DNA of 64,000 bases. It comes from Methanoregula sp. GTDB lineage: Archaea > Halobacteriota > Methanomicrobia > Methanomicrobiales > Methanospirillaceae. The notes under the pieces were generated by a model that was not told the DNA's origin, searched no databases, and worked only from the letters and a program-made list of their open reading frames with translations. Positions 2,017-12,567 of this stretch are shown piece by piece; the stretch's first letter is position 1, and every line of letters starts with the position of its first letter. A program made the translations under genes and the position numbers. The stretch lies in the NCBI RefSeq assembly GCF_028712425.1, contig NZ_JAQTQD010000010.1, positions 1 to 64,000 of the forward strand, in the 5' to 3' direction.

Positions 2017-3027
2017 TCACAGCTTGATCCGTGCGAATTCGACGAACTGGATTCCTGAAGAATGTACAGCGCCAAACAACATCTTCTTTTTGACACTGTG
2101 CGCCATCCGCACGGAACGGGAGATGACGCTCATGGAGAGAGCAGCTTCTTTCTCGACCGCGTGCACGAGCAGGTCCGAGTGGACGGAGGTCCCGCAGTAA
2201 ACGCGGAAGTGGTGCCCGAACTTGTATCCCGTCCGGGGCGTGAACCCGTGGCGGCGCAGTTCGGTATACACGGTATGTTTCAGGGTGAGCTCGCTGTCGC
2301 TCTCGCTTGCGAGAGTAAGATACCCGGCAAAACTCATATCCTGGTTCCCCCGCGTGAGCCGGATCGTACCCCGGTCCATGAGGTAGAGGAGTTCAACGGG
2401 GGCAAGCATCAGCCGCTCCGGGTCGAGCCGCTTGCCAAATCCCGCCTTTTCGAGGCTGGAACCCGCCGCTGCCCGGACCATTGCGGATTTGCCGGTCAGT
2501 ATTGCATCCATGGGGGTGAGAGCCGGTGGCGTGCAGGAAGCATCTGCCAGTTTCTGGAGCTTGATCTCGTAATAGGTCAGTTCCTGTTCGTCGTCAACGA
2601 CCGCAAGGATGTACTGTTTTCGCATATTACGCGAAGCGATCACTTCCTCGATCAGGCGTTCGAACAGGATAGGATCGCGCTCGGAGAGGACGCGGACAAG
2701 ATAGAGCGACTCGCCTTTTCCGGGCTTCTCCCCCCGCCGGAAGACCCGGAAGTCATGCGGCCCGGTCTGGACCACATACCCCCGTTCGCGCAGGTCGCGG
2801 TACACGAGAAAACTCCGCATGACCGTGGGCTGATCGGAGAACTCGGCAAAGAGGGTGTCAAACGAGTACCCGGACACTTCGATCTTCTGGCGGTGAAGGA
2901 GATACAGGGCCTCCTGCGGGGAAAGCCGGAGACCGTCTTTTTCAGGCCTGCCGTACCCGCTCTGCTCGTAGAGGGGGCGGCCTTCCCGCCCGGTGCGGAT
3001 GGTGGATCCATCGAATGTCGCTTTCAC
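2017..3027 (-). CDS. endA: tRNA-splicing endonuclease, two-repeat (alpha2) type
   Basis: Cuts introns out of archaeal pre-tRNA at bulge-helix-bulge motifs. The 336-residue protein has two homologous halves (each with a SPQEALYLL/APVELLYLM-type helix followed by a YRDLRERGY/YTELRRHGF-type strand), the fused arrangement known from several Euryarchaeota. Only the C-terminal half keeps the catalytic triad: Tyr in RTGYKFGHHFRVY, His in VHSDLLVHAV and Lys in HSVKKKMLFG. The N-terminal half is structural. It is the first gene of the endA-trpS-pheS run. The ATG is complementary to 3025-3027. Confidence 0.93.
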   Translation of the reverse strand: MKATFDGSTIRTGREGRPLYEQSGYGRPEKDGLRLSPQEALYLLHRQKIEVSGYSFDTLFAEFSDQPTVMRSFLVYRDLRERGYVVQTGPHDFRVFRRGEKPGKGESLYLVRVLSERDPILFERLIEEVIASRNMRKQYILAVVDDEQELTYYEIKLQKLADASCTPPALTPMDAILTGKSAMVRAAAGSSLEKAGFGKRLDPERLMLAPVELLYLMDRGTIRLTRGNQDMSFAGYLTLASESDSELTLKHTVYTELRRHGFTPRTGYKFGHHFRVYCGTSVHSDLLVHAVEKEAALSMSVISRSVRMAHSVKKKMLFGAVHSSGIQFVEFARIKL

Positions 3028-3318: not shown

Positions 3319-3960
3319 ATGGTGAACGAATACAACGACCCCGGATGCCGACGCAGGAGAAGACTCAACCTCTCAGGGTATCTCCTGCATTCAACCGTAA
3401 ACGGTCCCGGCACCCGGGCCGTTGTGTGGGTACAGGGGTGTCCCCTCCGGTGCAAAGGCTGTTTTAATCCGGCGTCATGGCCCTTCTCTCCTGCGCAGAT
3501 CATTCCGGCTGAAGAACTCGCCTCCCGCATCCTTGCTGCGGACGATATCGACGGCATTACGTTCTCCGGCGGGGAGCCGTTTGCCCAGGCCGGGCCGCTC
3601 GCAGACGTGGCAGAGCGGGTCATTGGTACAGGGCTCACGGTTGTCACCTATTCCGGTTACACGTTTGAACAGCTGGCCTCATGCCGCGATCCGGAGTATG
3701 GCCGGCTGCTTGCGGCAACGGACCTTCTGATTGCCGGCCCGTACCGCGACGACCTTACCTGCAGCGACAGGTACCGGGGATCGAGAAACCAGCAGCTCAT
3801 CCCCCTTTCCGGAAGGATCGCACCGGAACTCCTCCTTCCTTCACAGGCCCAGGAACATGCCGTGGAATTCAGCATCGCGCCTGATGGAACGATCACCACA
3901 ACGGGTTTTCCCCCCGACAGTATGGTGATGCAGGTGGCCGCACGATGCAGGGGGGAGTAA
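3319..3960 (+). CDS. Radical SAM protein resembling anaerobic RNR-activating (NrdG-type) enzymes
   Basis: A 213-residue radical SAM enzyme of the short NrdG/QueE-like activase type. The [4Fe-4S] motif CxxxCxxC is at Cys41, Cys45 and Cys48 (GCPLRCKGCFNP), and the SAM-contact TFSGGEPF follows near residues 80-88. No ribonucleotide reductase gene is adjacent. Instead it opens a cassette with Ycf35, Ycf46, WD40, Hsp70-like and DUF2997 genes, with 5 bases to the next start. A role in installing a glycyl radical or modifying a partner of that cassette is inference. It could also be a stray NrdG homologue, but the tight spacing argues it belongs to the system. Confidence 0.8.
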   Translation: MVNEYNDPGCRRRRRLNLSGYLLHSTVNGPGTRAVVWVQGCPLRCKGCFNPASWPFSPAQIIPAEELASRILAADDIDGITFSGGEPFAQAGPLADVAERVIGTGLTVVTYSGYTFEQLASCRDPEYGRLLAATDLLIAGPYRDDLTCSDRYRGSRNQQLIPLSGRIAPELLLPSQAQEHAVEFSIAPDGTITTTGFPPDSMVMQVAARCRGE

Positions 3961-3965
3961 GAGAG

Positions 3966-4364
3966 ATGTCGCATTTCAGCCGTATCAGGACAACATTCCG
4001 GCACCGAGAAGCACTTGTACAGTGCATGCAGGAACTCGGGTATTCGGTGGAGACCGATACGACCATCAAAGGGCACCATGGCCTTCACAACGTGGATATC
4101 GCTGCACGGAAGAAGGGTGGGTATGCCCTTGGATTCGTGAAGAACGCTGACGGTGTATACGACCTCGTGGCAGACTGGTGGGGCGTCTCCGGTACGAACG
4201 AGCAGAAAACTGCAGAAGAGCTGAAACGGCAGGCCGGCGCCATCCAGCAGGAGTATGCAAAAAAACTGGTGCTGGAACAGGCAAAGAAGGAGGGCTTCGA
4301 GCTGGTATCTGAGAAGAATGAACAGGACGGGACGGTGCAGCTCGTGGTCCGGAGGTGGAGGTGA
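3966..4364 (+). CDS. DUF1257 / Ycf35-family protein
   Basis: A 132-residue protein recognised as DUF1257 (Ycf35 in cyanobacteria and algal plastids) by its MSHFSRIRT start, the central LGYSV segment, the ALGFVKNADGVYDLVADWW core and a C-terminal EKNEQDGTVQLVVRRW-like strand. Its biochemical role is unknown. In cyanobacteria the family is often linked to Ycf46-type ATPases and DUF2997 proteins, and both are encoded in this cassette. I chose the ATG at 3966 because the conserved family start follows directly and a GAG-type ribosome site precedes it; an in-frame upstream ATG at 3945 lies inside the preceding gene. Four bases separate it from the AAA ATPase gene. Confidence 0.8.
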   Translation: MSHFSRIRTTFRHREALVQCMQELGYSVETDTTIKGHHGLHNVDIAARKKGGYALGFVKNADGVYDLVADWWGVSGTNEQKTAEELKRQAGAIQQEYAKKLVLEQAKKEGFELVSEKNEQDGTVQLVVRRWR

Positions 4365-4368
4365 GGCC

Positions 4369-5931
4369 ATGAAGATCGCTGAACCTGACTTTTCCCGCCG
4401 GCTGAATATCTCGCTCCGTGCCCGCGTGACCCTGATCGTTGTCATCACGCCCGAGGAGGAGCGGGCAGTATCCGGGATCCGCGAGGTATGCGAGTCCTGG
4501 GAACCTCCCCGCCAGTGCATTGCCTGGGACTGCGTGAGTGGCTTCTCCGTGCTTGCCGGTCCAAAAACTTTCCCCGGCCAGTCGCGGGATCCCCTCGCTG
4601 CGCTCGACGACATGATCAAGACCGGGGAAGACGCGGTCGTCATCTTAAAGGACTTCCACGAGTACTGGAACAACCCGCAGGTGAAACGCCGGATCCGCAA
4701 CTTCTCCCAGGAATTCCGGTACAACCGGAGGACGATCGTGATCCTGACCCCGGCAACACGCGTTCCGGACGAGATCCGCGATGAAGCGGTGATCGTCCAC
4801 TTCCCCCCGCCGAATGCAGCCGAACTCTCGGCAGATCTCAATACCCTGATTTCCACCAGCGGGATCACCTGCTCGCTCACCGAAGGGGGCCGCGAGAAGA
4901 TTATCCAGGCGGCGCTTGGCATGACACTGAACCAGGCACGGCGGGCGTTCTCGAAAGCAATCGTTGCCCACGGCAGGCTCGATGACCGCGACATTGACGC
5001 CATCATCGCCGAAAAGAAGGATATCCTCAGCGCTTCAGACGCCCTGGAGTTCTACAGTTACACCGAAATGCCGGAGAATGTCGGGGGCCTTGCGGTGCTC
5101 AAGGAATGGCTGGTCCTGCGCGAGCGGGCGTTCACGCAGGAAGCGAGAAACTTCGGCCTTCCATCCCCCAAGGGAATTGCCCTCATAGGCATCCCGGGTA
5201 CCGGAAAGAGCCTCACGGCAAAGATGATCGCCGATATATGGCACCTGCCACTCCTCCGGCTCGATGTGGGATCGCTTTTCGGGAGCCTTGTGGGGGAGTC
5301 CGAAGAGAGGACGCGCCGCGCCCTTGCCCTTGCAGAGACCATCAGCCCGTGCATCCTCTGGGTGGACGAGATCGAGAAGGCATTTGCGTTCGGCAGCGGG
5401 GATGCCGGGACAAGCCAGCGGGTCTTTGCCCACCTGCTGACCTGGATGCAGGACAAGACATCCCCCTGTTTTGTCGTTGCAACGGCAAACAATATCGCAG
5501 CGCTCCCGCCGGAACTCCTCAGGAAAGGCCGGTTCGACGAGATCTTCTTTTTAGACCTCCCGACCTTCGAGGAGCGGCGCGAGATCTTCTCAGTCCACTT
5601 GCGCAAGCGCAAGTGCATCCCGGCAGAGTTCGATCTCGAGACTCTTGCCCGGGAAAGTGACGGGTATGTTGGTGCGGAGATCGAGCAGACAATCATCGAT
5701 GCCATGTACCGGGCGTTCAGCGAGAATATGCGCAGGGTCACGACAGAAGACATCCTCACCTGCATGCAGGCGCAGGTGCCCCTCTCGGTTTCGCAGCGGG
5801 AGACGGTAGCAGCGCTCCGCACCTGGCTTGCCGAAGGGCGCGCCCAGTCAGCTTCCCGGGCAACCACGTCCCGGGTACCGATCAATGGCAAGACGATTGC
5901 ACTGGAGACATTTGTCCACGAGCGCCCGTAA
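4369..5931 (+). CDS. AAA+ ATPase, Ycf46-like
   Basis: A 520-residue AAA+ ATPase related to Ycf46 of cyanobacteria and plastids. Residues 1-210 form the family's N-terminal domain, rich in segments such as LDDMIKTGEDAVVILKDF. The AAA module follows, with Walker A GIPGTGKS near residue 275, Walker B ILWVDEIEKAF near residue 330, the sensor-1 segment VVATANN and an arginine-finger-like RKGRFDEIF. The C-terminal helical lid contains SDGYVGAEIEQ. It is expected to be an oligomeric, ATP-driven remodeller. The ATG at 4369 follows GGAGGTGAGG. The neighbouring DUF1257 and DUF2997 genes repeat the association seen in phototrophs. Its substrate is not predictable from sequence. Confidence 0.85.
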   Translation: MKIAEPDFSRRLNISLRARVTLIVVITPEEERAVSGIREVCESWEPPRQCIAWDCVSGFSVLAGPKTFPGQSRDPLAALDDMIKTGEDAVVILKDFHEYWNNPQVKRRIRNFSQEFRYNRRTIVILTPATRVPDEIRDEAVIVHFPPPNAAELSADLNTLISTSGITCSLTEGGREKIIQAALGMTLNQARRAFSKAIVAHGRLDDRDIDAIIAEKKDILSASDALEFYSYTEMPENVGGLAVLKEWLVLRERAFTQEARNFGLPSPKGIALIGIPGTGKSLTAKMIADIWHLPLLRLDVGSLFGSLVGESEERTRRALALAETISPCILWVDEIEKAFAFGSGDAGTSQRVFAHLLTWMQDKTSPCFVVATANNIAALPPELLRKGRFDEIFFLDLPTFEERREIFSVHLRKRKCIPAEFDLETLARESDGYVGAEIEQTIIDAMYRAFSENMRRVTTEDILTCMQAQVPLSVSQRETVAALRTWLAEGRAQSASRATTSRVPINGKTIALETFVHERP

Positions 5932-5943
5932 GGGAATGAATGC

Positions 5944-8739
5944 ATGAGATCTGCCGCTACGCTTCCCGTTTTCGGCCCCTTACTCCTCCGGCGCGAGGCA
6001 GGGAGACTGTCACGGAACCTCCGGGACGGGGATCTGTCCGCAATCGGAAACCTGGCAGACATTGCAGCAACTTGTGAGGACAAGGGTGCACGGCAGGTTG
6101 CCCGGGAGAGCCTTGCTTCCCTCGTGAACCAGGAAGCCATCGATGCCCTGTGTAATGAGGCCGTGTTGCGGGAGGATCCTTTCCTGCGGGATGTTGCTCT
6201 CGAAACGGGGTATACTCCCCTCGATCCCGGTGCAAAAGCATTGTTCCTGTTTCTTTCCGGGCAGGACGAGGCATTCCTCCGGTTCGATCCGGAGGACCAT
6301 CATCCCAAGCTTGCAGGGGGATATGCAAACGCACCGGCACGGATCCGGTTGCACGCGCTCCGTTATGCCGCGGAAAATGCTGGCAAAACCCGGGGGAATA
6401 TCCTCGCCCGTGCACTCCTGGGAAGAGAGCTTGACGGTGCTGCGGAGGACTGGTCGTACGGGGAATGGGAACTTGTCATGAAAACGCTTGCCTGCGATGC
6501 ATCCTGGGACCTGCTCTGGAGACTCGTACGCATGGCACCACCGTCCCTCTCCCGTGCAGCGCTCGAAACCATGAACCGTGCAGGCTGGCACCCGGGAGGC
6601 GATGAACGGCAGGTCTTTGAAGAGCTCGTCGCTGACCTGCCGGAATCCTGGAATGGCCCTGTGCCGGAAAAGCCGCTCAGCTCCCATGCGGTAGTGGACA
6701 GCCAGGTGCTGCGCCTCTCGTTCTCCAGGGACAGCACCCTCCTCGCCGCAGGATCGTGCGATGGCTCCATTACCGCCTGGAATGTCGGGTCTGCCCGGCT
6801 CCTTGGTTCCTGCACTCCCGGTACCGGGTCCCCGCATTTCCTTGCATTCTCTCCTGACAATACCCTGCTGATAGCCGGGGGCGACAGGGGCACACTCCAT
6901 GCAACCACCCACTCCGGTGAGCCGGTTTGGACCTTTGACGATCCTTCTCATCCCGTCAGGTGTGCGATCCTCTCGGCCAGTGGCGAGGAGATCCTTGCCG
7001 GGGACAGGGAGGGCGACCTTGTTTGTATAGGGTGCAAAACCGGGGCAGTCCGCCTCTCTGCACCCTGCCACCCCTCTCCCATAACCGCCCTTGCCCAGAT
7101 AGCGGGAGGGGAGTTACTGGCAACGGGCCATGCTGACGGTACGGTCTGTTGCCTTGACGCACTGGCGGGGAAGGTGATCTGGACTGTGCCGGGAGCAGGC
7201 GACGCTGTACGGGCACTTGCCTTCTCTGAAGAAAGCGGTGACATCCTCGTGATCCGCGGTCACGCTCTTCCGGTCTGCCTGTCTGGGCAGACCGGGAACC
7301 TGGTCCGGGCATTTGCCCGGCACAGCGGCACGGTATCCTGCTCTGCTATCTCCCGGGGATGCCGGACTGTTGTTGTTGGCGGCGATACGAACGTGCTCCG
7401 TATCTGGCATGAAGGGGACAATCCGGCCGTGGAAATTCCGCTCTTCAACAGGGTGCCGTCCTGTTGCGCGATCACGCAGGACGGGACCTGTCTCATTGCG
7501 GGCTGCAATGACGGAACGGTGTTCTCGTTTCATCTTCCGGGCGGAGGTAAGATCCGGGAGATCCGTGCGTACCGCCGCCCGGTGAGTGCCTGCTCCCTGT
7601 CTCCAAATGGAAGACTCCTTGCCCTTGCAGGCTGGGACGGGACAGTCTCCCTGAGAACAGTCCCGGATGGGGAACTCCTGCGCACCCTCAGGCGCTCCGC
7701 CGGGGCCGTCACGTCCCTTGCCTTCTCTGAGAGAGATGCCATAATCCTTGCCGGAACAGCAGATGGGACTGTCCGGCTGTTCTTCCCGGGAAATGGCACG
7801 ACAGGGCGGTGTATCGATCTCTATACCCCGTCATTACGAACGATCGCAGCAAGCCCTGACGGTGCAGTCCTTGCCTGTGCCGGAAAAGAGCCCGGCATCC
7901 GGTTCTGGGATATCCGGACCGGAAGCCTCCTTTCTTCCTGCAGCGGGCTGAAGACAACCGTGCGGTGCCTTGCTTTCCTGCCGGATGGGAAAACGCTCAT
8001 TACCGGGGGATGGGATGGCCGGGTCCGGTTCTGGGACGTCCCCTCCGGGACGGCAAAAGTGGTCTGCAAAGGCCATACCAGCACGGTCACCTGTTGTGCC
8101 GTGAGCCCGTCAGGCGAGCTGTTCGTGACCGGCAGCAATGATACAACCGTCCGTATCTGGCGGAGTGCAGATACCAGGGAACCGCGGGTCCTTCGCGATG
8201 CGGGTAAGGAAGTCTCCTGTTGTGCCATCTCCCCGGAAGGCACACTTCTTGCAGCGGCCGGGGCAGAACCCGTGATACGGCTGTATCACCTGCCGGACGG
8301 GGTACGCGCATATGACATCCCACAAATCCCGGGAATCCCCACAGCACTCTCTTTTACGAGCAACGGCCTTTGTCTTGCTGCAGGGTACGCAGACGGGACG
8401 CTGGCGTTCTATTCCCTGCCTGACCGCCACGTAATCCGGACACTGCCTGCCCATGCCGGGGCAGTGACCGGGATCGTCAGTATCCCGGAAACAGAGAATA
8501 TCGTGACCAGTGGTGAAGACGGGAGAGTCTGTACTTTCAAGGGGCCGTTCATCCGGCCCTTATTGTTCGCATCGTTTGCCGACCTGGAGTTCGCGCGGGA
8601 ACAGGCCGGAGGCGTTGAGACAATGGCTTCCCCGTGGCGCTTTCTGTACCGGCTCCTTTCCCTCCGGTTCCAGGACGAGATCGAACTCTGCCCGGTCTTC
8701 CAGGATGCCGGGGCGCTGGATATCCAGATTGTCGGGTGA
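5944..8739 (+). CDS. HEAT-like helical domain plus WD40 double beta-propeller protein
   Basis: A 931-residue scaffold protein. Residues 1 to about 235 are helical, with HEAT-like pairs and no catalytic motif. From about 245 to 895 there are 14-15 consecutive WD40-type repeats of about 42 residues. Typical blade signatures are LAAGSCDGSITAWNV, LLALAGWDGTVSLRT, LITGGWDGRVRFWDV and FVTGSNDTTVRIWRS. This number suits two seven-bladed propellers. A final segment of about 35 residues follows. No signal peptide is present, so it should be cytoplasmic. It lies 12 bases after the Ycf46-like gene and 18 bases before an Hsp70-like gene, so a role as assembly platform for the cassette is likely. The exact repeat count is my visual estimate. 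Confidence 0.82.
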   Translation: MRSAATLPVFGPLLLRREAGRLSRNLRDGDLSAIGNLADIAATCEDKGARQVARESLASLVNQEAIDALCNEAVLREDPFLRDVALETGYTPLDPGAKALFLFLSGQDEAFLRFDPEDHHPKLAGGYANAPARIRLHALRYAAENAGKTRGNILARALLGRELDGAAEDWSYGEWELVMKTLACDASWDLLWRLVRMAPPSLSRAALETMNRAGWHPGGDERQVFEELVADLPESWNGPVPEKPLSSHAVVDSQVLRLSFSRDSTLLAAGSCDGSITAWNVGSARLLGSCTPGTGSPHFLAFSPDNTLLIAGGDRGTLHATTHSGEPVWTFDDPSHPVRCAILSASGEEILAGDREGDLVCIGCKTGAVRLSAPCHPSPITALAQIAGGELLATGHADGTVCCLDALAGKVIWTVPGAGDAVRALAFSEESGDILVIRGHALPVCLSGQTGNLVRAFARHSGTVSCSAISRGCRTVVVGGDTNVLRIWHEGDNPAVEIPLFNRVPSCCAITQDGTCLIAGCNDGTVFSFHLPGGGKIREIRAYRRPVSACSLSPNGRLLALAGWDGTVSLRTVPDGELLRTLRRSAGAVTSLAFSERDAIILAGTADGTVRLFFPGNGTTGRCIDLYTPSLRTIAASPDGAVLACAGKEPGIRFWDIRTGSLLSSCSGLKTTVRCLAFLPDGKTLITGGWDGRVRFWDVPSGTAKVVCKGHTSTVTCCAVSPSGELFVTGSNDTTVRIWRSADTREPRVLRDAGKEVSCCAISPEGTLLAAAGAEPVIRLYHLPDGVRAYDIPQIPGIPTALSFTSNGLCLAAGYADGTLAFYSLPDRHVIRTLPAHAGAVTGIVSIPETENIVTSGEDGRVCTFKGPFIRPLLFASFADLEFAREQAGGVETMASPWRFLYRLLSLRFQDEIELCPVFQDAGALDIQIVG

Positions 8740-8757
8740 GGCTGTGGGGAATTATCC

Positions 8758-10359
8758 ATGAAAGCACCGGAACCAGCACCCCTCCTTGGTGTGGATTTCG
8801 GGGACGGGGCCATCGTCTGCGGGAGCATGCTACAGGACGGGAGCCGTTTTTTTACCCATGCATTCCCCGGCTGGTCTGATGAACTCCCGGGCACGGGCGG
8901 GTCCGGGCCGGTGCACCGGGTCCCGGCCCTGGTGCGGTATCGCGACGCGGATCACCATGAAATCGGGGAGGAGGTTGTGCGGGGGGGATATTTGGATACC
9001 CCGACAACGGCGCGGTGGATCCGCAGCTATCTGCTCGAAGAGAGCGGGGCACTGGTCGCAGCGGGGGATGAGAAACGGGTAACATTCCGCGATGCTGCGT
9101 GTGACCTCCTCGGTGCACTCCTTGCACAGACCACGACAGCACATCGGAACATCCGTTCCGTTGTCTTTTCTGTTCCGGAAGATGCGCCGCACTGGTACCG
9201 GGACTGGCTTTCAAAGATCGCCCACGCTTCGGGAATGACCGCCTGCCATACCATCGGAGAATGCACGGCAGCCGCAACCGGCTACGGCCTCACGGTTGAG
9301 ACGGGACAGTCGTTTCTCCTCTTTTCCTGTGACGAAACGGCACTCAGCCTCCGTATAGCATGGAACAACGGGTCTTCAGAAAGCGCAGAGATGGAAGTGA
9401 TCGGGTCGGCCCGGGCAGATACCGGTTCCGTGATCCTGGATTCCTGGATTGCCCAGGAGATCGTGGGAAAAAGCCACCTAATCTATCATGGGAGGCGGGG
9501 ACAAAGCCTGTACGATGCGGCACGTGCATGCGTCCCGGGAGTGGTGCAGCAGCTTACCCATGGCGATGAGGCTGTTGCGGGATTTTCCGACCCGGTCTCC
9601 GGGAGGCAAATCGTCGTGAGGATAACGGCAGGCGACATCGTCCGGGTCTTTGCCGACCATGGATTGCCCGCGATCCTTGACGATGTGGTCCGGCGCGCAC
9701 GCGGGGAGGCACTGGCACGGGGATACGCGGGGAGTGCACCGGCAGCAGTCCTGATGACCGGCCGGGGTTCACTCCTTCCCGCGGTGCAGGAACTTGTCCG
9801 GGAGCGTTTTTTTGGTGTTCCCGTTCACTCTGATCGCCCGCTCGACGCCATTGCGAGGGGGGCGTGCCGGTTCCGTTCCCATAGCGTGTCCTCAGCCTGC
9901 ATCCGGAACAAGTACGCGCTCCGGTACTGGGACCCGGCCACGCGGGAACACCGGTACCGTTTTCTCGTCCACAGCGGCGCACGATTTCCCAGCGCCGGAC
10001 AGGTCGCCCGGATCACCATCAGTGCCGCCTATGACGGGCAGGCCCGGCTTGGTCTCTCCCTGTTTGAGATTGGCAGCAATGGGCCCGGGACAGGACCTGC
10101 ACTCGAACTGGTCCAGGACCCTGCCGGAGGCGTCCGGGTTACCGGGCCCGAAAAAGATGCGGACGAGGAAAGCAGGCCAAGGCTCGTTAATGGCACACAA
10201 CCAGCACTGCTGACCGCCGATCCGCCCGGCGTAAAGGGAGAGCCCCGGTTCGAGCTGACATTCACCATCGACCGCGAGAGACAACTCTGCCTCACGGCCC
10301 GCGATCTCATCACCGGGGCAATTGTGAGAAGGAATACACCGGTGTGCCGGTTAACATAA
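8758..10359 (+). CDS. Hsp70/actin-fold ATPase-like protein
   Basis: A 533-residue DnaK-like protein. Phosphate-1 is LLGVDFGDGAIVCG near residues 8-21. A connect/phosphate-2-like region includes GECTAAATGYG near 165-175, which resembles the DnaK EPTAAALAYG motif. The adenosine loop is AVLMTGRGSLLPAVQ near 325, which resembles the VGGSSRIP segment. The C-terminal 150 residues are beta-rich and could be a substrate-binding domain, but sequence similarity to DnaK there is weak. It is much shorter and more divergent than housekeeping DnaK, and no dnaJ or grpE is nearby. It probably works with the Ycf46-like ATPase and WD40 protein. The start is the ATG at 8758. Confidence 0.75.
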   Translation: MKAPEPAPLLGVDFGDGAIVCGSMLQDGSRFFTHAFPGWSDELPGTGGSGPVHRVPALVRYRDADHHEIGEEVVRGGYLDTPTTARWIRSYLLEESGALVAAGDEKRVTFRDAACDLLGALLAQTTTAHRNIRSVVFSVPEDAPHWYRDWLSKIAHASGMTACHTIGECTAAATGYGLTVETGQSFLLFSCDETALSLRIAWNNGSSESAEMEVIGSARADTGSVILDSWIAQEIVGKSHLIYHGRRGQSLYDAARACVPGVVQQLTHGDEAVAGFSDPVSGRQIVVRITAGDIVRVFADHGLPAILDDVVRRARGEALARGYAGSAPAAVLMTGRGSLLPAVQELVRERFFGVPVHSDRPLDAIARGACRFRSHSVSSACIRNKYALRYWDPATREHRYRFLVHSGARFPSAGQVARITISAAYDGQARLGLSLFEIGSNGPGTGPALELVQDPAGGVRVTGPEKDADEESRPRLVNGTQPALLTADPPGVKGEPRFELTFTIDRERQLCLTARDLITGAIVRRNTPVCRLT

Positions 10360-10373
10360 GTGGAGGAAATGCA

Positions 10374-10577
10374 ATGGAACTTCAGGAAATGGAAATTACC
10401 ATCGACAAGGAAGGAAGAATCAAGGTGAACGTGAAAGGAGTACAGGGCACCGGCTGCCTTGCACTTACCCGGGAACTGGAGAAAGCCGCAGGAGTTGTCG
10501 AGCAAAGGGAATATACCGCGGATTATTACCAGGTGGAGACAGGTGTCCGCGAGCACCGGACACTAACCAACTGGTAA
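10374..10577 (+). CDS. DUF2997 family protein
   Basis: A 67-residue protein matching DUF2997, recognisable by the ITIDKEGRIKVNVKGVQG start and the helix CLALTRELEKAAGVVE. The family is small, of unknown function, and repeatedly found next to DUF1257 and Ycf46-type genes. The start at 10374 is set by a strong GGAGG at 10362-10366. An in-frame ATG at 10344 overlaps the preceding gene and lacks the conserved start. It is the last gene of the cassette; a small stem CCGGT/ACCGG at 10581-10595 follows. Confidence 0.8.
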   Translation: MELQEMEITIDKEGRIKVNVKGVQGTGCLALTRELEKAAGVVEQREYTADYYQVETGVREHRTLTNW

Positions 10578-10637: not shown

Positions 10638-11681
10638 TTAACAGAAATTCTCCGTGATATAGATTGCATTATCTGAAGCGAATGCAACCCCGATCCCCTC
10701 CTGCTGGAAGTGGTAATCAAGGATATTGTTCCGGTGCCCTTCGCTGTTCATCCACCCGTTGACTACCTTATTTGCGATGTACTCTTCAGTGCTCCATTGA
10801 TATTCTGTCTGCATGACAGTCCCGTTGGGCGCTACGAGGTTCTTGTAGGTATCATACCGGTACACCATCGCGATATTCTCGGAAATTCCCTCGGTATAAT
10901 ACGTTTCGTAATCGCGGACACACGGATACCCGGCCCATTCCCCCCGTGCACGGGCATCCATCCCATCCGGGTTCGTATGTTCAAAGAAGCCCCGGAGCGA
11001 CATATCGTAACTGTGCCCGCGGGCAATACTCGCGAGGAAGGAATCATACGGGAGAGTAGACAGCCCGCTCTGCTGGCGCTGTTCATTGATCAGTGCGTGG
11101 ATCCGGGCTTCAAGCGAGGAGGGATCGATGAAGGGCGCACCCTCGGTTTTGCTGGTGCAGGTATCGGATGGCGGCTGTGCGGGGACTCTCGTAACTGGAA
11201 GGGTATTCTGCGCCGTGAATGCCGGTGTGGGTGTCGCTGTTGGCAGGATCGTTGCAGGGGCCTGTGTTGTCTTCGGTGTGGCAATGGTAGTCTTCGTTGT
11301 CGTGATTTTTGTCGTGGGAACCGTGGATGGCGGGGGAGTCGGGAGAGATGTCGCAGGAGTCAGGAGTGCTGTTGTCACGGGTAATGATTCCGTGGGCAGA
11401 GGGGTAATCCCGGTAACTGATGCAGCAGGCACGGGAATAGCGTTGCCGGATTGTTTTCCTGCAGCATTTCCTGATATTCCCATGACCCACGGATATCCGA
11501 GAACCGCAACGATTGCAACAACGACAACAATGACCACAGCCGCGACAAACCATTGCAGTGGTGACCGGCCGGTCCCGGTCAATGACGGAAGGTCAGGCAG
11601 TCTTGTGCCGCACTGGGTACAAAATTTCTGGGATTTGTCGTCTGATATTGCCCCGCAGTTCGGGCAGGTAATGCGCGCCAT
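10638..11681 (-). CDS. Zinc-ribbon, membrane-anchored CAP/SCP-domain protein
   Basis: A 347-residue protein with three parts. Residues 1-25 form a zinc ribbon (CPNC...CTQC). A single hydrophobic segment at about 43-69 anchors it, followed by a Thr/Pro/Ala-rich linker of about 100 residues. The C-terminal 150 residues are a CAP (SCP/PR1-like) domain with LINEQRQQSGL, GHSYDMSLRGFFEH, SENIAM and the signature GWMNSEGHRNNIL. This predicts a cytoplasmic ribbon and an extracellular CAP domain; the target is unknown. The ATG at 11681 begins directly at the zinc ribbon. It is convergent with the DUF2997 gene and lies 46 bases beyond the nfo stop. Confidence 0.82.
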   Translation of the reverse strand: MARITCPNCGAISDDKSQKFCTQCGTRLPDLPSLTGTGRSPLQWFVAAVVIVVVVAIVAVLGYPWVMGISGNAAGKQSGNAIPVPAASVTGITPLPTESLPVTTALLTPATSLPTPPPSTVPTTKITTTKTTIATPKTTQAPATILPTATPTPAFTAQNTLPVTRVPAQPPSDTCTSKTEGAPFIDPSSLEARIHALINEQRQQSGLSTLPYDSFLASIARGHSYDMSLRGFFEHTNPDGMDARARGEWAGYPCVRDYETYYTEGISENIAMVYRYDTYKNLVAPNGTVMQTEYQWSTEEYIANKVVNGWMNSEGHRNNILDYHFQQEGIGVAFASDNAIYITENFC

Positions 11682-11727
11682 GCTTGGATGTGCATGGAAC
11701 CCGCACGGGAAAAAATATTTGGGACAG

Positions 11728-12567
11728 TCACCGTGCCAGTTCGCGCACCTTTTCAATATTCCCCCGGTCATCCCGCCTGTCATCAACGGGGGTCTCGCAG
11801 ACCAGAGGAAGACGCGAAAAGACCTTGTTGTGGAGGAGCTGGCGGAATCCCTCCTCACCAATGAACCCGAGGCCGATATGCTCATGCCGGTCGAGCCCGC
11901 TTCCCCTTTCGCCTTTCGTATCATTGAGATGGATGAGCCTCAGGTTGTCAAGGCCGAATGCCTCATCAAGCTGGTCGAGGGTTTCTATAATGCCATCCTC
12001 TGTTCGCAGCTCATAGCCTGCAGCAAAGGCATGGCAGGTGTCAAAACAGATACCAACACGCTCCTTTTTGTTAATACCGTCCAGGATCCCCCGGATGTGC
12101 TCAAAGCTGCTGCCCACACTGTTCTTCTCCCCGGCAGTATTCTCCAGAAGGAGCATTGAAGAAACCCCTGAATCCTTCAGCGCCGTGTTGATGGCGTGAA
12201 CCACCCTCGATCTCCCCCCGGCCATGCCGTCGCCGAGGTGATGGCCGAGATGCGTGACAAGATATGGGATCCCGAGTGTCGCGCACCTCTCAAGTTCTGC
12301 CGTGAGCGTTGCAATGGATTTCTCGTAAATTTCCGGTTTTGGGGAGGCAAGGTTGGGGAGGTAGGGCATGTGGTCAACCGGCAGGAGACCTGTTGTCCTG
12401 ATCTTTGACCGGAACGCTTCGGCAATGGAAGGGACGATTGGCTGGTATGCCCACCCCCGGGGGTTCCGGGAGAACATCTGGAAAACATCGCAGCCAGCAT
12501 CTTTTGCACGGTCCACTGCAAGGTCAAGAGAACCTGCAATCGAGACATGGACCCCGACTGTTACCAT
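11728..12567 (-). CDS. nfo: Endonuclease IV (AP endonuclease)
   Basis: Cleaves DNA at abasic sites in base-excision repair, using three metal ions in a TIM barrel. The 279-residue protein begins with VGVHVSIAGSLD and carries the family metal ligands in HMPYLPNL, THLGHHLG, LLENTAGEKNSVG, GICFDTCHAFAAGY, HLNDTKGERGSGLDRHEHIGLG and CETP. Length and motifs are complete. The start is the ATG complementary to 12565-12567. Confidence 0.95.
   Translation of the reverse strand: MVTVGVHVSIAGSLDLAVDRAKDAGCDVFQMFSRNPRGWAYQPIVPSIAEAFRSKIRTTGLLPVDHMPYLPNLASPKPEIYEKSIATLTAELERCATLGIPYLVTHLGHHLGDGMAGGRSRVVHAINTALKDSGVSSMLLLENTAGEKNSVGSSFEHIRGILDGINKKERVGICFDTCHAFAAGYELRTEDGIIETLDQLDEAFGLDNLRLIHLNDTKGERGSGLDRHEHIGLGFIGEEGFRQLLHNKVFSRLPLVCETPVDDRRDDRGNIEKVRELAR

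What the first reader, a model, noticed from the sequence alone, without database searches (positions are those of the whole stretch)
3319..10577. Six-gene radical SAM / Ycf35 / Ycf46-AAA / WD40 / Hsp70-like / DUF2997 cassette: candidate undescribed ATP-driven system
Six consecutive plus-strand genes with 4-18 base spacing encode a radical-SAM activase-like protein, a DUF1257 (Ycf35) protein, a Ycf46-like AAA+ ATPase, a HEAT/WD40 scaffold with two propellers, a divergent Hsp70/actin-fold protein and a DUF2997 protein. The DUF1257-Ycf46-DUF2997 association is known from cyanobacteria and plastids, where the biochemical role is unclear. Here it is in a methanogen and carries two further ATPase/scaffold partners and a radical enzyme. 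The combination suggests a remodelling or quality-control machine that acts on a redox or radical-bearing substrate. That function is inference.
Basis: partly seen in the sequence, partly recalled or inferred. Interest (0 to 1): 0.85.

Follow-up and report, generated by a model that had tools for sequence, protein, structure and literature searches.

The report
Six-gene chaperone-like cassette in methanogens
Six neighbouring genes in a methane-making archaeon, including relatives of two plastid genes of unknown role (ycf46 and ycf35), are gained and lost together as one block and recur in cyanobacteria and other bacteria, which points to an undescribed protein-remodelling machine whose client is still unknown.

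Summary
Six tightly spaced plus-strand genes (3319-10577) encode a radical SAM protein, DUF1257, a Ycf46-type AAA+ ATPase, a helical/WD40 scaffold, a short Hsp70-like protein and DUF2997.

They behave as one unit. DUF1257 and the Hsp70-like gene occur in the same 27 of 81 Methanoregulaceae genomes. In 8 of 12 cassette-free genomes the flanking genes endA and nfo lie 99-312 bp apart, with no remnant between them.

The set is not archaeal only. One genome from the Cyanobacteriota sample carries all six plus a GrpE-like gene in another order. Other cyanobacteria carry subsets with GrpE/Hsp70/scaffold; several other bacterial phyla carry radical SAM + AAA with DUF2997 and/or DUF1257. DUF1257 and DUF2997 are fused in two phyla. 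DUF2997 has a nearly invariant cysteine.

Two corrections: the window's Hsp70-like protein has lost its ATP-binding motifs but keeps a conserved peptide-binding domain, and the radical SAM link is recurrent, not a local novelty.

Best reading (0.5): an ATP-driven remodelling machine with the AAA+ ring as motor, DUF1257-DUF2997 as adaptor, scaffold and Hsp70-like domain as client capture, and radical SAM as optional redox arm. Client and chemistry are inferred, not shown.

The parts
3319..3960 (+). radical SAM protein, NrdG-like small activase type (213 aa); intact CxxxCxxC (CPLRCKGC) and GGEPF
   Evidence: Fer4_12 6.5e-32; NrdG 98.3 bits, below its cut-off 126.1; motif conserved in all relatives aligned
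3966..4364 (+). DUF1257 (Ycf35 family) protein, 132 aa; AF2 model pLDDT 81, no PDB fold match
   Evidence: 1.3e-23
4369..5931 (+). Ycf46-type AAA+ ATPase, 520 aa (Walker A GIPGTGKS, Walker B ILWVDE, SRH RKGRFD visible in the sequence)
   Evidence: PF00004 1.3e-30; tree
5944..8739 (+). scaffold: unassigned N-terminal domain (about 1-232) followed by WD40 propeller repeats, 931 aa
   Evidence: WD40 3.5e-70; N-domain found only in cognate cyanobacterial loci
8758..10359 (+). short Hsp70-like protein (NBD + SBD-beta, no lid), 533 aa; phosphate motifs degenerate in this genome
10374..10577 (+). DUF2997 protein, 67 aa; beta-beta-alpha model, conserved Cys28 at helix N-terminus
   Evidence: 8.9e-18
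2017..3027 (-). left flank: tRNA intron endonuclease endA (not part of the unit; marks the site)
11728..12567 (-). right flank: endonuclease IV-like nfo (not part of the unit; adjacent to endA in cassette-free genomes; named from its sequence, not scanned against a family library)

Best explanation
An ATP-driven protein-remodelling (chaperone/unfoldase-like) machine. The Ycf46-type AAA+ ring is the motor. DUF1257 and DUF2997 form one adaptor or regulator unit. The scaffold (N-domain plus WD40) and the Hsp70-like protein capture clients; in cyanobacterial relatives a GrpE-like factor would recycle that Hsp70, while in Methanoregula the Hsp70-like protein keeps only its peptide-binding half under strong constraint. 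The radical SAM protein is a redox/radical arm used in most non-photosynthetic carriers; its substrate may be the client or the conserved cysteine/glycine face of DUF2997. Shown: co-inheritance, fusion, gene composition, NBD decay. Inferred: physical complex, direction of action, client, radical chemistry.
For: DUF1257 and Hsp70-like genes in the same 27/81 genomes; cassette-free genomes have endA-nfo directly adjacent in 8/12; DUF1257-DUF2997 fusion in Bacillota L156/L157/L154 and rumen Alphaproteobacteria L067/L068/L084; all six plus GrpE-like in L142 with shuffled order; GrpE-like next to the Hsp70-like gene in Pseudanabaena (3.7e-11) and L144 (7.9e-6); scaffold N-domain specific to these loci; AAA motifs intact in the sequence; NBD 39.5% vs SBD 64.0% mean identity in the Methanoregula type, 62.8% vs 61.0% in the Methanolinea type.
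Against: No experiment; no client known. The Hsp70-like protein lacks ATP motifs here and no J-protein or GrpE is in the cassette. No fold match for DUF1257 or DUF2997, so 'adaptor' rests on position and fusion only. The Synechocystis ycf46 mutant phenotype (reduced EcaB activity, CO2 use; Jiang 2015 as cited in PMC7496141) is compatible but not specific.
Confidence: 0.5

Rival explanations
1. Radical-enzyme activation/reactivation system: the radical SAM protein is an activase for a glycyl-radical enzyme such as NrdD, and the AAA/Hsp70-like parts release or refold damaged enzyme, as Rubisco activase or diol-dehydratase reactivase do for their clients.
For: NrdG-like radical SAM with intact motif; genome encodes NrdD; recurrent in rumen/gut anaerobe bins and methanogens.
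Against: No glycyl-radical enzyme gene recognised in the loci inspected; the radical SAM is below the NrdG cut-off; NrdD lies on another contig and another NrdG2-like radical SAM gene sits next to thiC (that one identified by sequence resemblance only). Most cyanobacterial loci lack the radical SAM gene.
Confidence: 0.15
2. Conflict (immunity-like) system: DUF2997 is a small protein modified by the radical SAM protein, with AAA, scaffold and Hsp70-like protein as NTP-dependent sensor/threshold, like the ternary systems of Kaur et al. 2020.
For: Those systems include AAA+, Hsp70/GrpE themes and a radical SAM thought to modify a peptide (PMC7159879); patchy presence; plasmid carriage in cyanobacteria, Treponema, Paenibacillus and Arthrobacter.
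Against: No vWA, MoxR, GTPase or recognisable toxin/effector in the cassette; fixed chromosomal site between housekeeping genes across the family; DUF1257/DUF2997 are standard genes in cyanobacteria (PMC4284462).
Confidence: 0.15
3. Assembly or secretion helper for contractile injection or phage-tail-like particles.
For: In Treponema succinifaciens plasmid pTRESU01 the DUF1257 gene and the radical SAM-AAA pair lie among sheath, baseplate and VgrG genes.
Against: No such genes were seen beside any other carrier locus inspected.
Confidence: 0.04
4. Unrelated genes that happen to be neighbours.
For: None found.
Against: 27/27 co-occurrence, empty sites, shuffled-order recurrence, gene fusion.
Confidence: 0.01

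Closest known systems
Cyanobacterial/plastid ycf46, ycf35 (DUF1257), DUF2997 and fed7 genes
   Same: Same families; in cyanobacteria DUF2997-DUF1257-fed7 is a conserved cluster (PMC4284462) and a Ycf46-like AAA gene is followed by DUF1257.
   Different: Canonical loci have no Hsp70-like, scaffold or radical SAM gene beside them; the Fed7 [4Fe-4S] ferredoxin takes the Fe-S partner position.
Pseudanabaena galeata plasmid pPg_01 locus (L013)
   Same: Hsp70-like, DUF1257, DUF2997, AAA (61% identity), scaffold with the same N-domain.
   Different: Adds GrpE, an ATP-binding AAA_21/AAA_15-type protein and an unknown protein; no radical SAM.
   Same: All six genes, plus GrpE-like, within about 7.5 kb.
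   Different: Order is GrpE-Hsp70-AAA-DUF2997-radical SAM-DUF1257-scaffold; Hsp70-like protein keeps DFGTSN.
DnaK-GrpE with an AAA+ partner (ClpB-type bichaperone systems)
   Same: Logic of an AAA+ motor with an Hsp70 and its exchange factor.
   Different: AAA is CDC48/proteasome-ATPase-like Ycf46 type, Hsp70 lacks the lid, no J-protein found (ClpB comparison from own knowledge).
NTP-dependent conflict systems (Kaur et al. 2020, PMC7159879)
   Same: Themes of AAA+, Hsp70/GrpE, radical SAM and propellers.
   Different: No vWA/MoxR/GTPase core and no effector here.

Membership tests
DUF1257 (Ycf35) | Pfam PF06868 above curated cut-off over the full model | tested here: met
   83.6 vs 22.2 bits, 1-103/103
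DUF2997 | Pfam PF11211 above curated cut-off | tested here: met
   64.3 vs 24.1 bits
Ycf46-type AAA+ | AAA core plus shared N-terminal region; groups with Ycf46 relatives rather than PAN/CDC48 | tested here: inconclusive
   Aligns over 94% of its length with cyanobacterial AAA proteins; tree places it beside the Hsp70-associated cyanobacterial clade, with AAA-DUF1257 loci of canonical type next (SH-aLRT 92-100, unrooted, no PAN/CDC48 outgroup)
NrdG (class III RNR activase) | TIGR02491 above equivalog cut-off | tested here: not met
   98.3 vs 126.1 bits
Radical SAM superfamily | CxxxCxxC cluster motif and GGE motif | tested here: met
   CPLRCKGC, GGEPF; all 25 aligned proteins keep both motifs
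Hsp70 chaperones | Intact nucleotide-binding phosphate motifs | tested here: not met
   DFGDG.. and FSCDETALS in place of DFGTSN and DxGGGT; intact in Methanolinea and Pseudanabaena homologues
Hsp70 chaperones | Substrate-binding beta domain | tested here: met
   485-520 aligns to BiP/DnaK SBD; domain more conserved than NBD
Hsp70 chaperones | Peptide binding and nucleotide-driven cycling | not testable with these tools
   needs biochemistry
Ternary/NTP-dependent conflict systems | vWA or GTPase core with effector | tested here: not met
   none found by Pfam, NCBIfam, PADLOC
IetAS anti-phage ATPase | NCBIfam NF042959 cut-off | tested here: not met
   83.6 vs 510 bits

The most novel reading that the evidence does not exclude
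An unfoldase-coupled radical chemistry machine found in Archaea and Bacteria: the AAA+ motor presents a client to the radical SAM protein, with DUF1257-DUF2997 as a carrier whose conserved cysteine is modified or transfers sulfur/Fe-S, and the plastid genes ycf46/ycf35 are the oxygen-adapted remnant of it.
Probability: 0.1. Interest if true: 0.9.

Novelty: new variant of a known kind. Interest (0 to 1): 0.62.

Why it matters
ycf46 and ycf35 have been kept in red-lineage plastids and cyanobacteria without a known biochemical role. The locus here places their families in a larger, recurring gene set with Hsp70, GrpE-like, scaffold and radical SAM partners, found across two domains of life. That turns an old open question into concrete tests: does DUF1257-DUF2997 bind and regulate the AAA+ ring, what does the scaffold/Hsp70 arm capture, and what does the radical SAM protein modify. 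The decay of the Hsp70 ATPase half with conservation of the peptide-binding half is an unusual, testable step in chaperone evolution.

Tried and rejected
DUF1257 in IMG/VR by peptide patterns: no relatives, although Prochlorococcus myophages carry DUF1257. PADLOC: only generic AAA (IetA), WD40 and weak viperin matches. PDB sequence searches with DUF1257 and DUF2997 profiles: nothing meaningful. Fold searches of both AF2 models: no match at E <= 0.001; the best DUF2997 resemblances (protein L, ISG15) are too weak to use. A joint alignment of fused and single DUF1257/DUF2997 proteins misaligned, so I modelled DUF2997 alone. Radical SAM as the housekeeping NrdG: set aside because NrdD and another NrdG2-like gene lie elsewhere. 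Orphan Ycf46-like AAA genes in Armatimonadota, Methylococcales and Chromatium have none of the partners beside them, and the 5 such genomes searched lack DUF2997, so the AAA family is broader than the system. Two genomes of the same class as L142 have a related Hsp70-like gene without the cassette (L166, L167), so that Hsp70 family is also broader.

Full report
WHAT IS THERE. The six ORFs are at the stated place and strand; refined starts give gaps of 5, 4, 12, 18 and 14 nt. Family assignments: radical SAM (Fer4_12 6.5e-32), DUF1257 (1.3e-23), AAA (1.3e-30), WD40 (3.5e-70), DUF2997 (8.9e-18). The fifth protein is below the Pfam HSP70 cut-off but aligns to DnaK over 130-370 and to BiP/DnaK substrate-binding domains over 485-520, at similar positions. 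The host is a Methanoregula-type methanogen (97% AAA identity to Methanoregula sp. PD_MW2_B).

ONE UNIT. In 295 genomes of the phylum, DUF1257 occurs only in Methanoregulaceae (12). In 81 Methanoregulaceae genomes DUF1257 is found in 27 and the Hsp70-like gene in 27, and comparison of the two lists shows they are the same 27; equal sets of that size by independent draws would have a chance near 1e-21, not corrected for kinship. Of 32 Methanoregulaceae loci in named genome contigs, 28 hold all six in the same order and the other 4 stop at contig ends. The cassette usually sits between endA/trpS and nfo. In 12 cassette-free genomes none of the six genes was found within the stretch fetched beside endA, and in 8 of them endA and nfo are neighbours, 99 to 312 bp apart. 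The block is therefore gained or lost whole. GC content of the cassette (about 0.57-0.62 in 2-kb windows) is slightly above its surroundings, which decides nothing.

BEYOND ARCHAEA. The AAA protein's closest relatives outside the family are cyanobacterial: 61% identity on Pseudanabaena plasmid pPg_01 and 59% on a Geminocystis plasmid. In the AAA tree the Methanoregulaceae are one group (SH-aLRT 99) joined to cyanobacterial loci L013, L014, L142, L144 (100) (quick tree, unrooted; long branches flagged for L142, L015 and the Treponema, Paenibacillus and Arthrobacter rows). Cyanobacterial loci carry the Hsp70-like gene with a GrpE-like gene in Pseudanabaena (3.7e-11), L144 (7.9e-6) and, weakly, L142 (0.012). 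The scaffold's N-terminal domain, outside the WD40 repeats, matches the neighbours in L013 (1.5e-42), L142 (4.5e-29) and L144 (3.5e-25) and nothing else in the loci searched (next E > 1), so the scaffold link is specific. L142 holds all six plus GrpE-like in the order GrpE-Hsp70-AAA-DUF2997-radical SAM-DUF1257-scaffold. Two genomes of its class have related Hsp70s without the cassette.

THE CORE MODULE. Outside these, radical SAM and AAA recur beside DUF1257 and/or DUF2997: Paenibacillus plasmid (AAA-DUF1257-DUF2997-radical SAM), rumen/gut Bacillota and Alphaproteobacteria (DUF2997, radical SAM, AAA), Arthrobacter plasmid (AAA and radical SAM, with a weak DUF2997 match) and Treponema plasmid (radical SAM-AAA, with DUF1257 and DUF2997 elsewhere on the plasmid). 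DUF1257 and DUF2997 are one polypeptide in Bacillota (L156/L157: 4.8e-23 and 4.6e-9; L154: 5.2e-6 and 1.4e-16, directly after an AAA gene) and in rumen Alphaproteobacteria (weak DUF1257 half). This is the best evidence that the two small proteins act together. All 25 aligned radical SAM proteins keep the cluster and GGE motifs. DUF2997 has a nearly invariant Cys (C28), absent in one divergent Bacillota copy; in the model (pLDDT 84) it sits at the start of the helix of a beta-beta-alpha unit.

THE HSP70-LIKE PROTEIN. In Methanolinea and Pseudanabaena homologues DFGTSN and DxGGGT are intact; in the window they read DFGDGA and SCDETALS. Among 11 Methanoregula-type proteins the NBD averages 39.5% identity and the SBD 64.0%; among 9 Methanolinea-type proteins 62.8% and 61.0%. 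I chose these two groups after seeing the motifs, so the comparison is descriptive. The simplest reading is loss of the ATPase role with retention of peptide binding.

MECHANISM. Best explanation at 0.5: AAA+ motor, DUF1257-DUF2997 adaptor, scaffold/Hsp70-like client capture, radical SAM as optional redox arm. In cyanobacteria the Fe-S partner beside DUF2997-DUF1257 is Fed7, which binds a DnaJ-like protein and protects against oxidative and metal stress (PMC4284462); slr0373-slr0374(ycf46)-slr0376 is a stress operon and ycf46 inactivation lowers EcaB activity (PMC7496141). Presence of ycf35 and ycf46 in red-algal plastids correlates with marine habitat, which the authors link to iron limitation (PMC5940233). 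These fit a stress/redox protein-care role and do not prove it. Rivals: radical-enzyme reactivation (0.15) and conflict system (0.15).

NOVELTY. Only three papers in the open library mention DUF1257 or DUF2997, and none of the papers I opened describes this gene set; subscription papers were not searchable. The parts are known families; the assembly, its block-wise gain and loss, and its cross-domain recurrence are what is new.

Noticed in passing
L109 1-18060, L016 8354-12578 (Treponema succinifaciens plasmid pTRESU01): DUF1257 and a radical SAM-AAA pair lie inside contractile-injection-system gene clusters (sheath, baseplate, VgrG).
   Followed up: partly
L110 5001-5381, L111 4001-4384 (phages P-SSM2, P-SSM7): Prochlorococcus myophages encode DUF1257 proteins; in P-SSM7 the gene is near psbA and a ferredoxin gene.
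   Followed up: no
window 10638-11924 (-): CAP/SCP-domain gene next to the cassette; found beside it in most Methanoregula carriers but not beside endA in the 12 cassette-free genomes nor in Methanolinea loci.
   Followed up: partly
L145 3119-15569, L153 1086-3680: Cyanobacterial AAA/Hsp70-like loci are flanked by repeated proteins with a YDAVLGG..PP..GVVLGG start; one of them has HEAT and FGE-sulfatase domains, another WD40 repeats.
   Followed up: no
L145 8826-10385: The Hsp70-like gene of this cyanobacterium is interrupted by an in-frame stop and reads as two ORFs.
   Followed up: no
L014 6455-8914 (Geminocystis plasmid): RloB-family and zeta-toxin-family genes sit beside the DUF1257, DUF2997 and AAA genes.
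   Followed up: no
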